10,223 bases of DNA, from NCBI GenBank assembly GCA_019509685.1, contig JAEKLU010000247.1, forward strand, positions 1 to 10,223. Reading direction: 5' to 3'. Made by a program: the position numbers and the translations under genes. This stretch comes from Mesorhizobium sp. GTDB lineage: Bacteria > Pseudomonadota > Alphaproteobacteria > Rhizobiales > Rhizobiaceae. The notes beneath the pieces are model-generated. The model was not told the DNA's origin, did not search any database, and worked only from the letters and a program-made list of their open reading frames with translations. Positions 379 through 8,703 of this stretch are shown here, one piece after another; the stretch's first letter is position 1, and the number at the start of each line of letters is the position of its first letter.

Positions 379-1413
379 ATGACTGGACCCATGAAAGCCA
401 CCGTAGCCGACATCGCCAGAAGCTGCGGCCTGTCGACCGCGACTGTCGACCGGGTGCTGAACAACCGTCCGGGCGCAAGTGCGGCCAACCGCCAGCGCGT
501 GATGGAGGCGGCCAAGCAGCTCGGCTATCTGCCGACGCTCGACCAGGTGGTGTTGCCGTCGAAGCCGGCGCATCTCGAATTCTTCCTGCCGATCGGCAGC
601 AACGCCTTCATGGCCGACCTTGCCGGCCATATCGAGGACTACGCCCAGCGCCTGCCGCTTGTCGCCTCCTGCCGCATCCATAACCTTACCGGCATCTCGC
701 CGGGCGCTCTGCAGGCGGCGGTCGAAAACCTATCGCTCAAGGCCAATGGCGTCGGCGTCATCGCCGTCGATCACCCGCGCACGCGCAACATCCTGCGCGA
801 GCTGGTCGAGGCCGGGATCAGGCTGGTCACCCTGGTCTCCGACGTGCCGGCAGCGCCGCGCTCGGCCTATGTCGGCATCGACAATCGCGTGGCGGGCCGC
901 ACGGCGGCGCTGCTGATGGGTCGCTTCCTCGATGGCCGTACAGGGCATCTGGCGATGGTGGTCGGTTCGCGCTCCTATCGCGGCCATGAGGAGCGCGAAA
1001 TGGGCTTCCGCTCGGTGCTCAGCGAAGAGTTCCCAAACCTCACCGTCTCCAGTGCCGCTGAGAGCAATGACGAGCCGGACGCCTGCTACCGCGCGACGAT
1101 CAAGGCGCTGCACAACGAACCGGAACTGCTCGGCATCTATTGCGTCGGCGGCGGGCGCTCGGGCGTGGCCAAGGCGCTGCTCGAGGCCAAGCCGCGCAAG
1201 AAGCCGGTCTTCATCTGTCACGACCTGACCAAGGAGACGCGGCGCTATCTCGTCGACGACCTTGCCGATGTCGTCCTCGACCAGAATGCGCGGCTGATCG
1301 CCGAGCAATCGGTGATCCGCCTGCTCGGCTCGATCGCCTCATCGGCGCCCTATCTGACCAAGAAATTCATCGAGCCGCAGCTGATCTTCAAGGAGAATGT
1401 CCCCGTACAATAG
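379..1413 (+). CDS. LacI-family transcriptional regulator with periplasmic-binding-type sensor domain
   Basis: This is a DNA-binding regulator, 344 aa, the normal length for the family. The N-terminal helix-turn-helix and hinge are at about residues 8-60: TVADIARSCGLSTATVDRVL is a textbook LacI reading head, followed by a hinge-like LGYLP. The rest is a type-1 periplasmic-binding fold of the ribose/galactose-binding kind, with a segment around GVGVIAVDHP, a YVGIDN strand, GHLAMVVGSRSYRGHEERE and LGIYCVGGGRSGVAKAL. It follows a sugar ABC ATPase gene directly, so it probably controls that importer in response to its sugar; this is inferred from position only. The first ATG (379) is used here. 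An ATG four codons later (391) would give the more usual MKATVADIA start, and neither has a convincing ribosome binding site. No T-rich terminator follows the stop at once; a palindromic repeat lies just behind it. Confidence 0.93.
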   Translation: MTGPMKATVADIARSCGLSTATVDRVLNNRPGASAANRQRVMEAAKQLGYLPTLDQVVLPSKPAHLEFFLPIGSNAFMADLAGHIEDYAQRLPLVASCRIHNLTGISPGALQAAVENLSLKANGVGVIAVDHPRTRNILRELVEAGIRLVTLVSDVPAAPRSAYVGIDNRVAGRTAALLMGRFLDGRTGHLAMVVGSRSYRGHEEREMGFRSVLSEEFPNLTVSSAAESNDEPDACYRATIKALHNEPELLGIYCVGGGRSGVAKALLEAKPRKKPVFICHDLTKETRRYLVDDLADVVLDQNARLIAEQSVIRLLGSIASSAPYLTKKFIEPQLIFKENVPVQ

Positions 1414-1426
1414 GGGTCAGTGTCAA

Positions 1427-1477
1427 AGAGCATGATGCCTTGCGAAACCCGCTTCACACTTTTCGGCATCATTCTCT
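1427..1477. repeat. Short palindromic intergenic repeat (REP-like)
   Basis: The arms at 1427-1439 and 1465-1477 pair in 12 of 13 positions (around GCATGATGCC and GGCATCATTC) with a 25-base loop that includes CCCGCTTCACACTTTTC. From memory, near-identical 'GCATGATGCCGAAAAGTG' palindromes are scattered between genes in Mesorhizobium and relatives, so this is probably one copy of a dispersed element. It begins 13 bases after the LacI-family stop codon and could end or stabilise that transcript, but it has no T-tract. Confidence 0.6.
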
Positions 1478-1559
1478 AGCCGGGCGCCAAACGCGGTTCC
1501 TCGTATTTGTCAGACGATTGATCCCGCAATTCTGCACAGCAGCTATGCATGTTTCGCAA

Positions 1560-1588
1560 TTGCCGAATCGTTAGGCACCCCGTATTTA
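1560..1588 (+). promoter_or_regulatory. Possible promoter of the small RNA
   Basis: TTGCCG (1560-1565) and TATTTA (1583-1588) are separated by 17 bases. They would place the transcription start near 1594-1596, exactly at the foot of the first hairpin of the small RNA. The -10 match is weak, so the call rests mainly on spacing and on the position of the RNA. Confidence 0.35.
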
Positions 1589-1593
1589 CCTGG

Positions 1594-1710
1594 GTGTCGG
1601 CCGTCTCCTCCTCCCAGATGTGATGCCGACGATGAGTGCGGTACACCTCCTCCCGTGCCGCATTCGAAATCAAGCCCGCTGCCACCTCCTCCCGGCAGCG
1701 GGCTTTTTCT
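1594..1710 (+). ncRNA. Trans-acting small RNA with three anti-Shine-Dalgarno hairpin loops (alpha-r14 / NfeR1 / 'cuckoo' type)
   Basis: Three consecutive hairpins each carry CCTCCTCCC in the loop. Hairpin 1 has an outer stem 1596-1601/1625-1630 (GTCGGC/GCCGAC), a 4-base bulge at 1621-1624, an inner stem 1602-1606/1616-1620 and the exact loop CCTCCTCCC at 1607-1615. Hairpin 2 is an 11-bp stem, 1634-1644/1655-1665, with two G-U pairs and loop ACCTCCTCCC at 1645-1654. Hairpin 3 is a perfect 11-bp stem, 1673-1683/1694-1704, with loop ACCTCCTCCC at 1684-1693, running into TTTTTCTTT. Length (about 117 nt) and architecture match what I recall of the alphaproteobacterial alpha-r14 family (NfeR1 of Sinorhizobium meliloti) and the 'cuckoo' RNAs, which base-pair with ribosome binding sites of many mRNAs, often ABC-transporter genes. 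The 5' end is inferred from the possible promoter and the hairpin foot. The structural evidence is strong; expression is not shown. Confidence 0.85.
1673..1710 (+). terminator. Rho-independent terminator of the small RNA
   Basis: A perfect 11-bp GC-rich stem (AGCCCGCTGCC / GGCAGCGGGCT) with a 10-base loop is followed by TTTTT then CTTTG. It doubles as the third hairpin of the small RNA and carries its third CCTCCTCCC loop. Confidence 0.88.
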
Positions 1711-1734
1711 TTGCGCGCTTGGATGTGGCGCCAG

Positions 1735-1875
1735 CCCCCTCACCCGGATTGCCGAGTCGAATTGCTTTGCAATTCGGGCAATCCGACCTCTCCCCGAGGG
1801 GAGAGGAGCGGGTTAGCGCAGGCTTCCTCTTCTCCCTCGGGGAGAAGGTGGCCGCGAAGCGGCCGGATGAGGGGG
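1735..1875. repeat. Multi-stem inverted-repeat intergenic element (RIME-like mosaic)
   Basis: The outer arms CCCCCTCACCCGG (1735-1747) and CCGGATGAGGGGG (1863-1875) are inverted copies with one mismatch. Inside are four further hairpins: CGGATTGCC/GGCAATCCG with CGAATTGC/GCAATTCG (1745-1785, 3-base loop, 4-base bulge); CCTCTCCCC/GGGGAGAGG (1787-1806, perfect, 2-base loop); CTTCTCCC/GGGAGAAG (1829-1847); and GGCCGC/GCGGCC (1850-1864). Together they form a large cruciform-like structure. Elements of this look ('ccctcatccgg... cttctccc') are common between genes in rhizobia, and I take it for a dispersed repeat related to RIME mosaic elements, by recollection rather than by search. It lies 31 bases past the tetR-type stop, between convergent transcripts, where it could block read-through from either side. 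Confidence 0.7.
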
Positions 1876-1906
1876 TGTCGCGCGCTCGAAGCCGCGCTCA
1901 GCGTGC

Positions 1907-2488
1907 TCAGCGTGCTCTAAATGAGGCGATCAGGCCCTCGGCCATACGCACGAACTGCGTGCTGGGCCCTTCGGTTCCCACGGTCTGCACGCTGACGCGC
2001 GCGCCCTCGAACAGAAGCGATAGCGTATCGGCGAGCAGTTCGGCCTGGCCGATGCCGGCATCCCGGCACAATGTCACAAGGCGGTGGCGCTGGGCTTCCT
2101 TGAGCTCCTTGATTACAAGCCTCGCCGGATGGTCCGGCTCGGTCAGCTCAGCGGCGGCATTGGCCATGTCGCAGCCGCGGCCATCGGCATTGAGCATGGC
2201 AGCCGCCTTGCGAACCCAGGCATGAAGCTGCGCGAGCTTGTCGCCGGGAAATTCAACTTCGAAAGCCTCCCACATCGCACCGGCCTTGGCCGCGTTGGCG
2301 CGCAGGCATTCGACGATCAGTTCGTCCTTGGATTCGAAGTGACGATAGAGCGTCATCTTGTTCGTGCCGGCAGCTTCGGTGATGGCATCGACGCCAACGC
2401 CCTTGATGCCGTGCTTGTGGAACATGTCACGCGCCGTCTCGAGGATTCGATCCCGGGGACGTGAGCGTTCCACGACGCCGTCGGTCAT
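1907..2488 (-). CDS. TetR/AcrR-family transcriptional repressor, probably of the adjacent RND efflux genes
   Basis: This is a ligand-responsive DNA-binding repressor, 193 aa from the chosen start. The N-terminal TetR reading head is clear at about residues 8-55: RDRILETARDMFHKHGIKG, then VDAITEAAGTNKMTLYRHF and a following ESKDELI. The C-terminal helical domain is the variable ligand and dimer part. Start choice: AAAGGAG (AGGAG complementing 2495-2499) lies 6 bases before the ATG at 2488 but only 3 before the adjacent ATG at 2491, so 2488 is preferred. A longer reading to 2524 would put the ribosome binding site inside the gene. The gene is divergent from an RND pump operon, and the gap holds two GTTAC-N6-GTAAC sites, the expected layout for an efflux repressor. 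The last codons GCA CGC TGA are tandemly duplicated across the stop. The ligand is unknown. Confidence 0.93.
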   Translation of the reverse strand: MTDGVVERSRPRDRILETARDMFHKHGIKGVGVDAITEAAGTNKMTLYRHFESKDELIVECLRANAAKAGAMWEAFEVEFPGDKLAQLHAWVRKAAAMLNADGRGCDMANAAAELTEPDHPARLVIKELKEAQRHRLVTLCRDAGIGQAELLADTLSLLFEGARVSVQTVGTEGPSTQFVRMAEGLIASFRAR

Positions 2489-2527
2489 CATGATCTCCTT
2501 TCGTTTCCTAAAAACCACGGCCACCTC

Positions 2528-6193: not shown

Positions 6194-7342
6194 ATGCGTA
6201 GATGGAAAATCGCTTTAGGAGCCGCCGTCGCGATCGGCGCGGTCTCGGTGGCAAGCGTTCACCTGCTGAACCCGGGCTACCTCGGTGGCGGCACCGCGGG
6301 CGCCGCGCCCGCCCCGGCGGCCTTCGTCATGCCGGTGCCGGTGGTCAATGTCGTCAAGAAGACCTTGCCGATCTATCTCGACTACGCTGCGCGCGTCGAA
6401 GCGATCCGCAGCATCACGCTGCAGGCGCGCGTGCCGGGCTATCTGCAGGAGCAGACCGCCGCCGACGGCAGCGACGTGAGCCAGGGCGCCCTGCTCTACC
6501 GGATCGCGCCGCAGGATTATCAGGCAGCGCTGGACCAGGCGCAGGCGCAGGTGCAGCGCGATAACGCGACGCTTGACTACGCCCGCTCCAATCTCGGCCG
6601 CGGCACCGACCTTGCCAAGGCCGGCTACCTCGACAAGGACAGCTTCGACCAACGCACCAGCACCTTGCGCACGGCGCAAGCCGCCCTTGCCGTCGACCAG
6701 GCTGCGGTGCGGACGGCCGAGCTCAATCTCGGCTATGCCGAAATCAAGGCGCCGTTCAACGGCCGCATTGGCCGCAACCAGGCCTCGGTCGGCACGCTGG
6801 TCAGCGTCGCCGGCACGGTGCTCAACACGCTGGTGCAGCTCGACCCGATCTACGTGACCTTCAACCCGAGCGAGACCGATCTCATCCAGATCGCTCAGGC
6901 AAAGGCCGCCGGTCCGATCGCCGTCGATGTGCTGTTGCCCGGCGAGACGGTGCCCAGCCAGAAGGGCGAGCTCACCTTCATCGACAACACGATCGACCAT
7001 TCGACCGGCACCATCACGGCGCGCGCCACCATCGGCAACGCCAAGTTCACGCTGCTGCCGGGACAATATGTGCGCGTGCGCCTGCATGTGAAGGAGCAGC
7101 CCAACACGCTGATGGTGCCGCAGGTGGCGCTCGGCTCCAGCCAGCTCGGCAAGTATCTCTACGTGCTGGGCAAGGGCAACACTGTCGACCAGAAGCTGGT
7201 GTCGCTTGGGCCGACCGACGGCGACCTCGTTTCCGTGACCTCCGGCATTTCCGAGACCGACCAGGTGATCACGGGCAATTTGCAGAAGATCGGACCAGGA
7301 ATGCCGGTTTCTCCCTTGCCGCAACCGAAACCGGCCAGCTGA
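6194..7342 (+). CDS. RND efflux periplasmic adaptor subunit (membrane fusion protein)
   Basis: This protein, 382 aa, links the inner-membrane RND pump to an outer-membrane channel. The N-terminal hydrophobic segment (about residues 4-25, WKIALGAAVAIGAVSVASVH) is a signal anchor. It has no lipobox cysteine, so it is not a lipoprotein like AcrA. It then shows a half lipoyl motif (ITLQARVPGYLQ), an Ala/Gln-rich coiled-coil hairpin (about 110-180, DQAQAQVQRDNATLDYARSN), the second lipoyl half (YAEIKAPFNGRIGRNQASVG, about 181-200), the beta-barrel (LDPIYVTFNPSETDL) and a membrane-proximal domain (LLPGQYVRVRLHV). The gene begins 15 bases after the permease stop, with GGAG seven bases before the ATG, so it is the last gene of the efflux operon. 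A strong terminator follows. Confidence 0.96.
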   Translation: MRRWKIALGAAVAIGAVSVASVHLLNPGYLGGGTAGAAPAPAAFVMPVPVVNVVKKTLPIYLDYAARVEAIRSITLQARVPGYLQEQTAADGSDVSQGALLYRIAPQDYQAALDQAQAQVQRDNATLDYARSNLGRGTDLAKAGYLDKDSFDQRTSTLRTAQAALAVDQAAVRTAELNLGYAEIKAPFNGRIGRNQASVGTLVSVAGTVLNTLVQLDPIYVTFNPSETDLIQIAQAKAAGPIAVDVLLPGETVPSQKGELTFIDNTIDHSTGTITARATIGNAKFTLLPGQYVRVRLHVKEQPNTLMVPQVALGSSQLGKYLYVLGKGNTVDQKLVSLGPTDGDLVSVTSGISETDQVITGNLQKIGPGMPVSPLPQPKPAS

Positions 7343-7366
7343 TAACCCCCATCAGTTTCCGGTCCG

Positions 7367-7409
7367 ACGGCGCCCTCGACACCCACGTCGAGGGCGCCGT
7401 TTCTTTTTC
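7367..7409 (+). terminator. Rho-independent terminator of the efflux operon
   Basis: A perfect 14-bp stem (7367-7380 with 7387-7400, core GGCGCCCTCGAC / GTCGAGGGCGCC) with a 6-base loop ACCCAC is followed by TTCTTTTTC. It begins 24 bases after the adaptor stop and faces the 3' end of the lysR remnant on the other strand. Confidence 0.92.
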
Positions 7410-8010: not shown

Positions 8011-8703
8011 ATGGCAAAGCTGGATTTCAGTCCGATCGCGGACACGACCCGCAGGGCGGAGATCGTCGCCCTGCTGCGGCGAGCGATCCTCACCGGACAG
8101 CTGGAGCCGGGCCAGAAGCTGAACGAGCTGCGCATCTCCGAGCAGATGCGCGTGAGCCGCGCGCCGCTGCGCGAGGCGATGCGGGAGCTGGTGCAGGAAG
8201 GCATCCTGACCAGCATCCCCTATGCCGGAACCTTCGTCATCGACGTCACCGCCAAGGACATCGTCGACGCTTATTCGCTGAACAAGGTGCTCGACGAGTT
8301 CGCCATCGAGCTCGCCTGGCCGCAGCGCGACCGGCGCTTCTTCGACGAGCTCGACCATCGCCATGATGCGGTCAAGCAGGCGACACGGGCGCTGGACACC
8401 ACGCGTCAGATCGAGACGGCGCTGCAATTGCATGGGCTGATCTACGAATGGGCGGACAATTCGGTGCTTCTGGAAACCTGGCAGCGGCTGACCAGCCGGC
8501 TGCAGATGTATTTCGCCCTGCATCAGCGGGCGCGCAACGAGGCGGTGCCGGCGCTCGACGTGCACGAGACCTATGTGGCGCTGCTCAAAGGCAGCCACAT
8601 GAAGGCCGCGCAACGCCATGCGCGCGAACATATCGATCTCGATTTCGAAGAGCTTCTTGCCTATGCGCGCAGCCTCGAAAAACGGTTGCCGAAAGGCGCC
8701 TGA
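8011..8703 (+). CDS. GntR-family transcriptional regulator, FadR/FCD subfamily
   Basis: This is a ligand-sensing transcription factor, 230 aa, typical for the subfamily. The winged helix is at about residues 14-78: AEIVALLRRAILTGQLEPGQ, KLNELRISEQMRVSRAPLRE and AMRELVQEGILTSIPYAGTF. The FCD effector domain fills the rest, with the three expected metal-binding histidines in LQLHGLIYEWADN, LDVHETYVALLKG and RHAREHIDLDFEE. GGGAG stands 6 bases before the ATG. It leads a cluster with two enolase-superfamily enzymes: the next start is 27 bases after its stop on the same strand, so it is probably part of that operon. FCD regulators commonly bind the sugar acid or amino-acid-derived acid that the neighbouring enzymes degrade. 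A TTGTCGACAA palindrome at its own promoter suggests self-control. Confidence 0.94.
   Translation: MAKLDFSPIADTTRRAEIVALLRRAILTGQLEPGQKLNELRISEQMRVSRAPLREAMRELVQEGILTSIPYAGTFVIDVTAKDIVDAYSLNKVLDEFAIELAWPQRDRRFFDELDHRHDAVKQATRALDTTRQIETALQLHGLIYEWADNSVLLETWQRLTSRLQMYFALHQRARNEAVPALDVHETYVALLKGSHMKAAQRHAREHIDLDFEELLAYARSLEKRLPKGA

What the first reader, a model, noticed from the sequence alone, without database searches (positions are those of the whole stretch)
1594..1710. Small RNA with three CCUCCUCCC loops between lacI- and tetR-type genes
Three hairpins in a row each present the anti-Shine-Dalgarno sequence CCTCCTCCC in an otherwise unpaired loop, and the last is a perfect terminator. Stems differ in sequence while the loops are the same, which is what selection on loop-mediated mRNA binding produces. 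It fits the alpha-r14 (NfeR1) or 'cuckoo' type of RNAs, which in rhizobia affect osmoadaptation and symbiosis. Protein-only annotation would leave this stretch blank.
Basis: partly seen in the sequence, partly recalled or inferred. Interest (0 to 1): 0.75.

Follow-up and report, generated by a model that had tools for sequence, protein, structure and literature searches.

The report
Anti-ribosome-site small RNA in Mesorhizobium
This stretch is a copy of a known small regulatory RNA of nitrogen-fixing soil bacteria, built to stick to the ribosome-landing sites of messenger RNAs, and relatives keep it at the same place with its own conserved switch region.

Summary
Window 1592-1710 (+) matches Rfam ar14 (RF02344) at 78.6 bits against a cut-off of 58.8. 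It is therefore a new genomic copy of a known family (alpha-r14, founder NfeR1), not a new kind of RNA. The window comes from a Mesorhizobium. The order lacI-like, sRNA, tetR-like, RND pump is kept in 74 of 80 relatives. Three loops share the core UCCUCCC in 81 of 81 bodies, but the full nine letters occur three times in only 30 of 81. Two-sided pair changes support hairpin 2. The RNA has its own conserved promoter region. A 17-bp dyad at 1533-1549 fits, on the other strand, the LsrB/VtlR-type pattern TGCAT-N3-TG-N3-TGCA seen before AbcR1-type sRNAs of the genus. A second, unassigned dyad at 1561-1577 overlaps the presumed -35. The most likely mechanism is trans-silencing of many mRNAs by masking Shine-Dalgarno sequences. 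Two links to NfeR1 did not carry over: no NtrC pattern at the NfeR1 position, and none of 25 Mesorhizobium ntrB start regions offers the published eight pairs. Expression was not tested.

The parts
1592..1710 (+). ar14-family small RNA gene, 5' end estimated at 1592-1595, 3' end in the T run 1704-1708
   Evidence: Rfam RF02344, 78.6 bits, cut-off 58.8, full length; ends inferred
1596..1630 (+). hairpin 1: stem 1596-1606 with 1616-1620 and 1625-1630, loop CCTCCTCCC 1607-1615, 4-nt bulge 1621-1624
   Evidence: all cells paired in 47 distinct orthologous bodies, no two-sided change; loop partly paired in the minimum-energy fold
1634..1665 (+). hairpin 2: 11 pairs, loop with CCTCCTCCC 1646-1654
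   Evidence: 5 pairs with changes on both sides, 95.7% of cells paired; one pair is unpaired in 16 of 47 rows and its neighbour in 6
1672..1705 (+). hairpin 3 and intrinsic terminator: 12 pairs, loop with CCTCCTCCC 1685-1693, followed by T run 1704-1708
   Evidence: perfect 12-nt inverted repeat; nearly invariant in orthologues
1533..1549 (-). conserved 17-bp dyad TGCACAGCAGCTATGCA; reverse strand TGCATAGCTGCTGTGCA fits the LsrB/VtlR-type pattern TGCAT-N3-TG-N3-TGCA
   Evidence: TGC-N11-GCA kept in 79 of 80 aligned rows; full pattern in 49 of 81 sources; highest LsrB-type matrix score in the window, but below the lowest training site; consensus from PMC8844928 (passages)
1561..1577 (.). second conserved 17-bp dyad TGCCGAATCGTTAGGCA, overlapping the presumed -35; regulator unknown
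   Evidence: TGC-N11-GCA kept in 80 of 80 aligned rows, 11 bp from the first dyad in 79
1560..1588 (+). presumed core promoter TTGCCG (1560-1565), 17 bp, TATTTA (1583-1588)
   Evidence: inferred by eye from conservation and spacing; the consensus scan found no sigma-70 match
379..1413 (+). upstream neighbour: LacI-type regulator gene (context, not part of the RNA gene)
   Evidence: Pfam LacI and Peripla_BP_4
1907..2524 (-). downstream neighbour: TetR-type regulator gene (context)
   Evidence: Pfam TetR_N

Best explanation
It is an independently transcribed, trans-acting small RNA of the ar14 family, about 115 nt long. Three hairpin loops each offer an anti-Shine-Dalgarno seed (core UCCUCCC). 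Each loop can pair with a G-rich ribosome-binding site and so block translation of many mRNAs, while the third hairpin ends transcription. Shown here by computation: family membership, structure, terminator shape, conservation of the seeds, a conserved upstream region, one stable genomic place. Inferred: that it is made, that it silences mRNAs (reported for NfeR1 of S. meliloti), and that a LysR-type activator of the LsrB/VtlR kind binds the dyad 1533-1549.
For: RF02344 match over the full model. Hairpins: 98.6% of cells paired, 5 pairs with two-sided changes (reached by 4 of 500 shuffles), covariation score reached by 0 of 500, slid controls pair 31-47%. In 18 of 80 loci hairpin 1 is built with another stem, with 34-35 instead of 39 nt between loops 1 and 2, yet keeps the seed in its loop. 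The seed core occurs three times in 81 of 81 bodies. Two upstream elements are about as conserved as the RNA while the flanks are not: mean column identity 0.93 for 1533-1549 and for 1560-1577, 0.40 and 0.34 for the outer flanks. In 4 of 80 loci, which share one related insert, about 2.7 kb of other genes separate lacI from the sRNA, but the promoter elements stay with the sRNA; this argues against a lacI 3'-UTR product. Silencing through redundant aSD loops is reported for NfeR1 in PMC10746234 (introduction and results sections read).
Against: No expression data for this copy. The -10/-35 do not fit the sigma-70 consensus scan, and the presumed -10 is only moderately conserved (0.68). Hairpin 1 folds another way by energy alone. 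The number of further pair types is not above shuffles, 292 of 500. S. [quoted passage not shown] No own target could be named.
Confidence: 0.88

Rival explanations
1. It is the 3' end of the lacI-type mRNA: an ordinary terminator whose loops are decoration, with any sRNA released by processing.
For: Same strand, 154-207 nt from lacI end to loop 2 in 76 of 80 loci; terminator shape present.
Against: Promoter-like dyads conserved just upstream of the RNA and kept with it when other genes separate it from lacI, in 4 of 80 loci that share one related insert. Two further hairpins with invariant seed cores are not needed for termination.
Confidence: 0.08
2. A silent, redundant family copy kept by chance or by gene conversion with other ar14 copies.
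For: 4-9 ar14 matches at E up to 0.1, sub-threshold ones included, in 30 of 31 genus genomes searched, 2 in the other; a second copy type has almost the same body and another promoter; only one of six S. meliloti copies was reliably detected (PMC7143759, passages).
Against: A promoter-plus-RNA match in 129 of 146 genus genomes by my reading of the list; promoter dyads and their spacing nearly fixed.
Confidence: 0.08
3. It encodes a small repeat protein; the 39-nt spacing of the motifs is 13 codons and an open frame crosses it (1620-2225).
For: Frame open in the window.
Against: Orthologues carry 1-nt and 5-nt length changes between the loops, which break any frame; pairing, not codons, is preserved.
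Confidence: 0.01

Closest known systems
alpha-r14 family (Rfam RF02344 ar14), founder NfeR1 / Smr14C2 of Sinorhizobium meliloti
   Same: Three hairpins, CCUCCUCCC in each loop, terminator as third hairpin, about 115-123 nt, an LsrB-type (LysR-type) pattern upstream.
   Different: This copy has its LsrB-type pattern in the opposite orientation and about ten bases nearer to the estimated start, no TGC-N11-GCA at the NfeR1 NtrC position, a second dyad over the presumed -35, and a lacI/tetR neighbourhood. Orthology to NfeR1 is not shown; the neighbourhood of nfeR1 was not compared.
CcsR / 'cuckoo' RNAs and the CIN1 locus (DUF1127 gene followed by CCUCCUCCC RNAs)
   Same: Same loop motif. Loci with a DUF1127-like sequence and tandem ar14 copies exist in the same genus.
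   Different: The window copy stands alone behind a lacI gene; the CcsR1 model is matched only in part and below its cut-off.
AbcR1 / alpha-r15 (RF02345)
   Same: Anti-Shine-Dalgarno sRNA with an LsrB/VtlR-type site at a similar distance from its start.
   Different: Different RNA family and structure; two aSD motifs, Hfq-bound (PMC7143759 and PMC8844928, passages).

Membership tests
alpha-r14 (RF02344) | covariance-model score above the curated cut-off, full length | tested here: met
   78.6 bits, cut-off 58.8, positions 1-123 of 123; also met in 10 of 10 relatives given, of which L205 is the second copy type and L228 lies outside the genus
alpha-r14 (RF02344) | three hairpins, each with CCUCCUCCC unpaired | tested here: met
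   three exact motifs; loops 2 and 3 fully unpaired, loop 1 by comparison but not by minimum energy
alpha-r14 (RF02344) | third hairpin is an intrinsic terminator | tested here: met
alpha-r14 (RF02344) | own sigma-70 promoter CTTAGAC-N17-CTATAT with a conserved upstream stretch | tested here: inconclusive
   upstream stretch conserved, but hexamers diverge from consensus
alpha-r14 (RF02344) | silences mRNAs through the aSD loops | not testable with these tools
   published for NfeR1 (PMC10746234, sections read)
NfeR1 orthologue | LsrB site upstream of the core promoter | tested here: inconclusive
   pattern present: TGCATAGCTGCTGTGCA on the - strand, about -62 to -46 if the start is 1595; NfeR1 site is given as -72 to -60 or -57. 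Matrix score 15.0 is the best in the window but below the lowest training site, 18.9. Binding not testable here
NfeR1 orthologue | NtrC site TGC-N11-GCA at about -116 to -100 | tested here: not met
   in the window the pattern occurs only at 1533, 1561 and 4546; the dyad at 1561 scores below all nine presumed NtrC training sites
NfeR1 orthologue | eight-nucleotide pairing with the start region of ntrB | tested here: not met
   25 Mesorhizobium ntrB start regions, longest Watson-Crick run: 6 in one, 5 in one, 4 in 22, 3 in one; -3.3 to -10.8 kcal/mol against -20.6 for a perfect site. The window's own ntrB was not available
CcsR / CIN1 locus | DUF1127 gene co-transcribed upstream | tested here: not met
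   the upstream neighbour is a LacI-type gene; a DUF1127-like sequence precedes the tandem copies instead
CcsR / CIN1 locus | CcsR Rfam model above cut-off | tested here: not met
   CcsR1 18.5 bits against 65.3, 27 of 83 positions

The most novel reading that the evidence does not exclude
Mesorhizobium runs one almost unchanged anti-Shine-Dalgarno RNA body from several differently wired genes. The copy in the window would be co-activated with AbcR1 by LsrB/VtlR through an inverted box and switched off by a second regulator on a dyad over the -35. Paralogue number and promoter, not the seed, would then set the regulation, with the NfeR1-NtrBC loop of S. meliloti rewired or lost in this genus.
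Probability: 0.33. Interest if true: 0.5.

Novelty: new member of a known kind. Interest (0 to 1): 0.3.

Why it matters
The RNA adds a well-supported locus to a family whose founder affects nodulation and salt tolerance in S. meliloti. The conserved promoter region gives a concrete prediction (LsrB-type control shared with AbcR1) in Mesorhizobium. It also warns against carrying the NfeR1-ntrBC loop over to this genus unchecked.

Tried and rejected
NtrC as regulator of the second dyad: the published signature TGC-N11-GCA is so loose that the LsrB-type site fits it too. Against a matrix from nine presumed NtrC sites (upstream of glnK-amtB and dusB; presumed by position, not shown) the dyad 2 variants score 9.5-15.4 and dyad 1 scores 10.4, the lowest training site 18.4. 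Left open.

ntrB as a conserved target: none of 25 Mesorhizobium loci reaches eight contiguous pairs; one reaches six.

Neighbouring genes as targets: hybrid energies for five window genes with Pfam support and one alternative start range from -5.5 to -11.9 kcal/mol, the best the GntR-type gene at 8011. No shuffled control was run and nothing stands out. Near matches to GGGAGGAGG in the window, the three sRNA sites included, are reached by 20 of 200 shuffles.

Sub-threshold Rfam matches to 6C, whalefall-1, tfoR and anti-hemB were taken as chance. The 7332-7405 stretch shows, by eye, a terminator-like hairpin after the membrane-fusion gene.

Matching this locus to one of the M. huakuii 7653R candidates (MH_s11, MH_s16 or MH_s22 have fitting flanks in Table 1 of PMC5596092, section read) could not be settled, because that genome was not available to me by name.

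The paper that defines the cuckoo family (PMC4615179) is not held, so what I say of it comes from passages of other papers. I do not claim that this exact copy is unpublished.

Errors corrected on the way: and 35 loci of minus-strand matches were read unreversed (redone). In one search four dusB loci (L193, L194, L200, L202) show no site, possibly because the script picked the wrong strand; 21 of 25 show one. The alignment has 80 rows, the window and 79 of 80 loci, since L117 was dropped by a filter; it is included from then on. Alignment A1 holds only the 47 distinct bodies with the 39-nt type of hairpin 1; the 13 distinct bodies of the other type were folded separately.

Full report
What is there. 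On the + strand, between a LacI-type gene (379-1413) and a convergent TetR-type gene (1907-2524, followed by an RND pump gene and a membrane-fusion gene), window 1592-1710 matches the Rfam family ar14 over its full length at 78.6 bits, cut-off 58.8, E 2.7e-13. The motif CCTCCTCCC is present three times and is not expected by chance. The fold is far more stable than shuffles (z = -6.2). Hairpin 3 has the shape of a terminator.

Relatives. The window's own assembly is not held. Its LacI protein finds named relatives at up to 96% identity; 77 of the 80 kept are labelled Mesorhizobium (537 stretches matched in all), so the window is from that genus. In 76 of 80 such loci the RNA lies 154-207 nt (lacI end to loop 2) behind lacI; in 4 of 80 it lies about 2.9 kb away, behind one related insert (82-98% alike among the four). 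TetR and the RND gene follow in 74 of 80; in two of the other six the stretch held ends just behind the RNA, and in four the insert uses up the flank. In 146 genomes of the genus, 134 match the query 1400-1730. By my reading of the list, 129 have a match that runs from the promoter (query base 132 or earlier) to the terminator (base 309 or later). Rfam ar14 over the cut-off is found in 137 of 151 genomes of the GTDB family and 30 of 31 of the genus, mostly with several copies.

Selection on the structure. In 47 distinct orthologous bodies 98.6% of cells form the proposed pairs. Five pairs change on both sides, all in hairpin 2 (4 of 500 shuffles reach five), and the covariation score is not reached by any of 500 shuffles. 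The number of further pair types is not above the shuffles, 292 of 500. One pair of hairpin 2 is unpaired in 16 of 47 rows and its neighbour in 6. Hairpin 1 never breaks but shows one-sided changes only. Hairpin 3 hardly varies. A second architecture of hairpin 1, with 34-35 nt instead of 39 between loops 1 and 2, is found in 18 of 80 loci and makes the stem with other letters around the same seed. The seed core TCCTCCC is in all three loops of 81 of 81 bodies. CTCCTCCC occurs three times in 80 of 81, the full nine-mer three times in only 30 of 81. So the fixed part is seven to eight letters, and loop 1 is the variable one.

Promoter region. Just upstream lie two 17-bp dyads, 1533-1549 and 1561-1577. 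Mean column identity is 0.93 for 1533-1549 and for 1560-1577, against 0.40 and 0.34 in the outer flanks and 0.68 at the presumed -10. Their TGC-N11-GCA frame is kept in 79 of 80 and 80 of 80 rows and their 11-bp gap in 79 of 80. The first dyad, read on the - strand, is TGCATAGCTGCTGTGCA. The LsrB consensus GCAT-N3-TG-N3-T lies at -61 to -49 of PabcR1 (PMC8844928, passages). Of 30 ar15 (AbcR-type) loci of Mesorhizobium that I read, the 11 of the 113-115-nt class carry TGCAT-N3-TG-N3-TGCA at -62 or -63, two further copies carry TGCATAGCTGCACTGCA at the same distance, and the other 17 (about 90-98 nt) have no such site apart from two loose matches to the short consensus. In one locus (L269) a gene with a LysR substrate-binding domain lies nearby. 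In the window the short consensus by itself is not rarer than chance (3 matches; 37 of 200 shuffles reach that). The longer 17-bp form, which I chose after seeing these sites, is found at this promoter in 49 of 81 sources and nowhere else in their 561,111 bases; the looser TGCA-N9-TGCA is at the promoter in 79 of 81 and nowhere else. These loci are related, so the counts are not independent. In a matrix test trained on six sites the dyad scores 15.0, the best of 20,414 places in the window and matched or beaten by 4 of 86,558 places in a wider set that holds a training site, but below the lowest training site, 18.9. This is a lead, not a proof. Of 30 ar14 loci from the GTDB family, 6 have GCATTGCTGC at -56 or -57, and 8 have it with one letter free, in the forward direction; the window has the similar GCATAGCTGC on the other strand. 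The second dyad overlaps the presumed -35 and would suit a repressor; its protein is unknown.

Other copies. The genus also has tandem ar14 copies behind a DUF1127-like sequence (CIN1-type locus) and a second lone copy type with nearly the same RNA body but another promoter. This makes the picture of one RNA body under several promoters likely.

How it works. Published work on NfeR1 reports that the three aSD loops act redundantly in silencing mRNAs at their start regions, and that LsrB activates and NtrC represses its promoter (PMC10746234; abstract, introduction, three further sections and passages read). By analogy this RNA should do the same with its own target set. I could not confirm the ntrB target: in 25 Mesorhizobium loci the start region of ntrB offers six contiguous pairs in one, five in one and four or three in 23, against eight in print. 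The NtrC pattern is not at the NfeR1 position. Expression, targets and phenotype remain untested.

Verdict.

Noticed in passing
window 1731-1885: A repeat with a 12-nt inverted pair (TCTCCCCGAGGG / CCCTCGGGGAGA) sits just behind the terminator; similar sequence (E up to 1e-5) is found in 14 of 80 relatives, all 18 matches within 300 nt behind loop 3, so it may be a mobile palindromic element that favours this spot.
   Followed up: partly
L155 4054-6687 (related inserts in L145, L158, L166): An insert of about 2.7 kb between lacI and the sRNA in 4 of 80 loci; in L155 it holds a nucleotidyltransferase-like gene (Pfam NTP_transf_5), a gene with a PqqD match just below its cut-off, and a third without a Pfam match, perhaps a small peptide-modification cluster.
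   Followed up: partly
L205-L224: A second lone ar14 copy type with nearly the same RNA body and a different conserved promoter (TTCGCA...TGTGCATTGCAATAT); a similar promoter accompanies some copies in other genera of the family (by eye).
   Followed up: partly
L180-L204, 52-61 bases before the start of the dusB profile match: Conserved TGCTTGGTTTTTGTGCA (or close variants) upstream of dusB-ntrB in 21 of 25 loci, possibly an NtrC operator of Mesorhizobium.
   Followed up: partly
L245, L246: Two ar15 (AbcR-type) copies with far higher scores (108.8 and 105.1 bits) than the others listed (61.6 or less), with an LsrB-type box TGCATAGCTGCACTGCA.
   Followed up: no
genus of G001, genomes of 3.3-4.8 Mb such as G162, G180, G211, G223, G280: Of the 12 of 146 genus genomes without any match to window 1400-1730, 9 are small (3.3-4.8 Mb), suggesting loss or absence in a separate lineage.
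   Followed up: no
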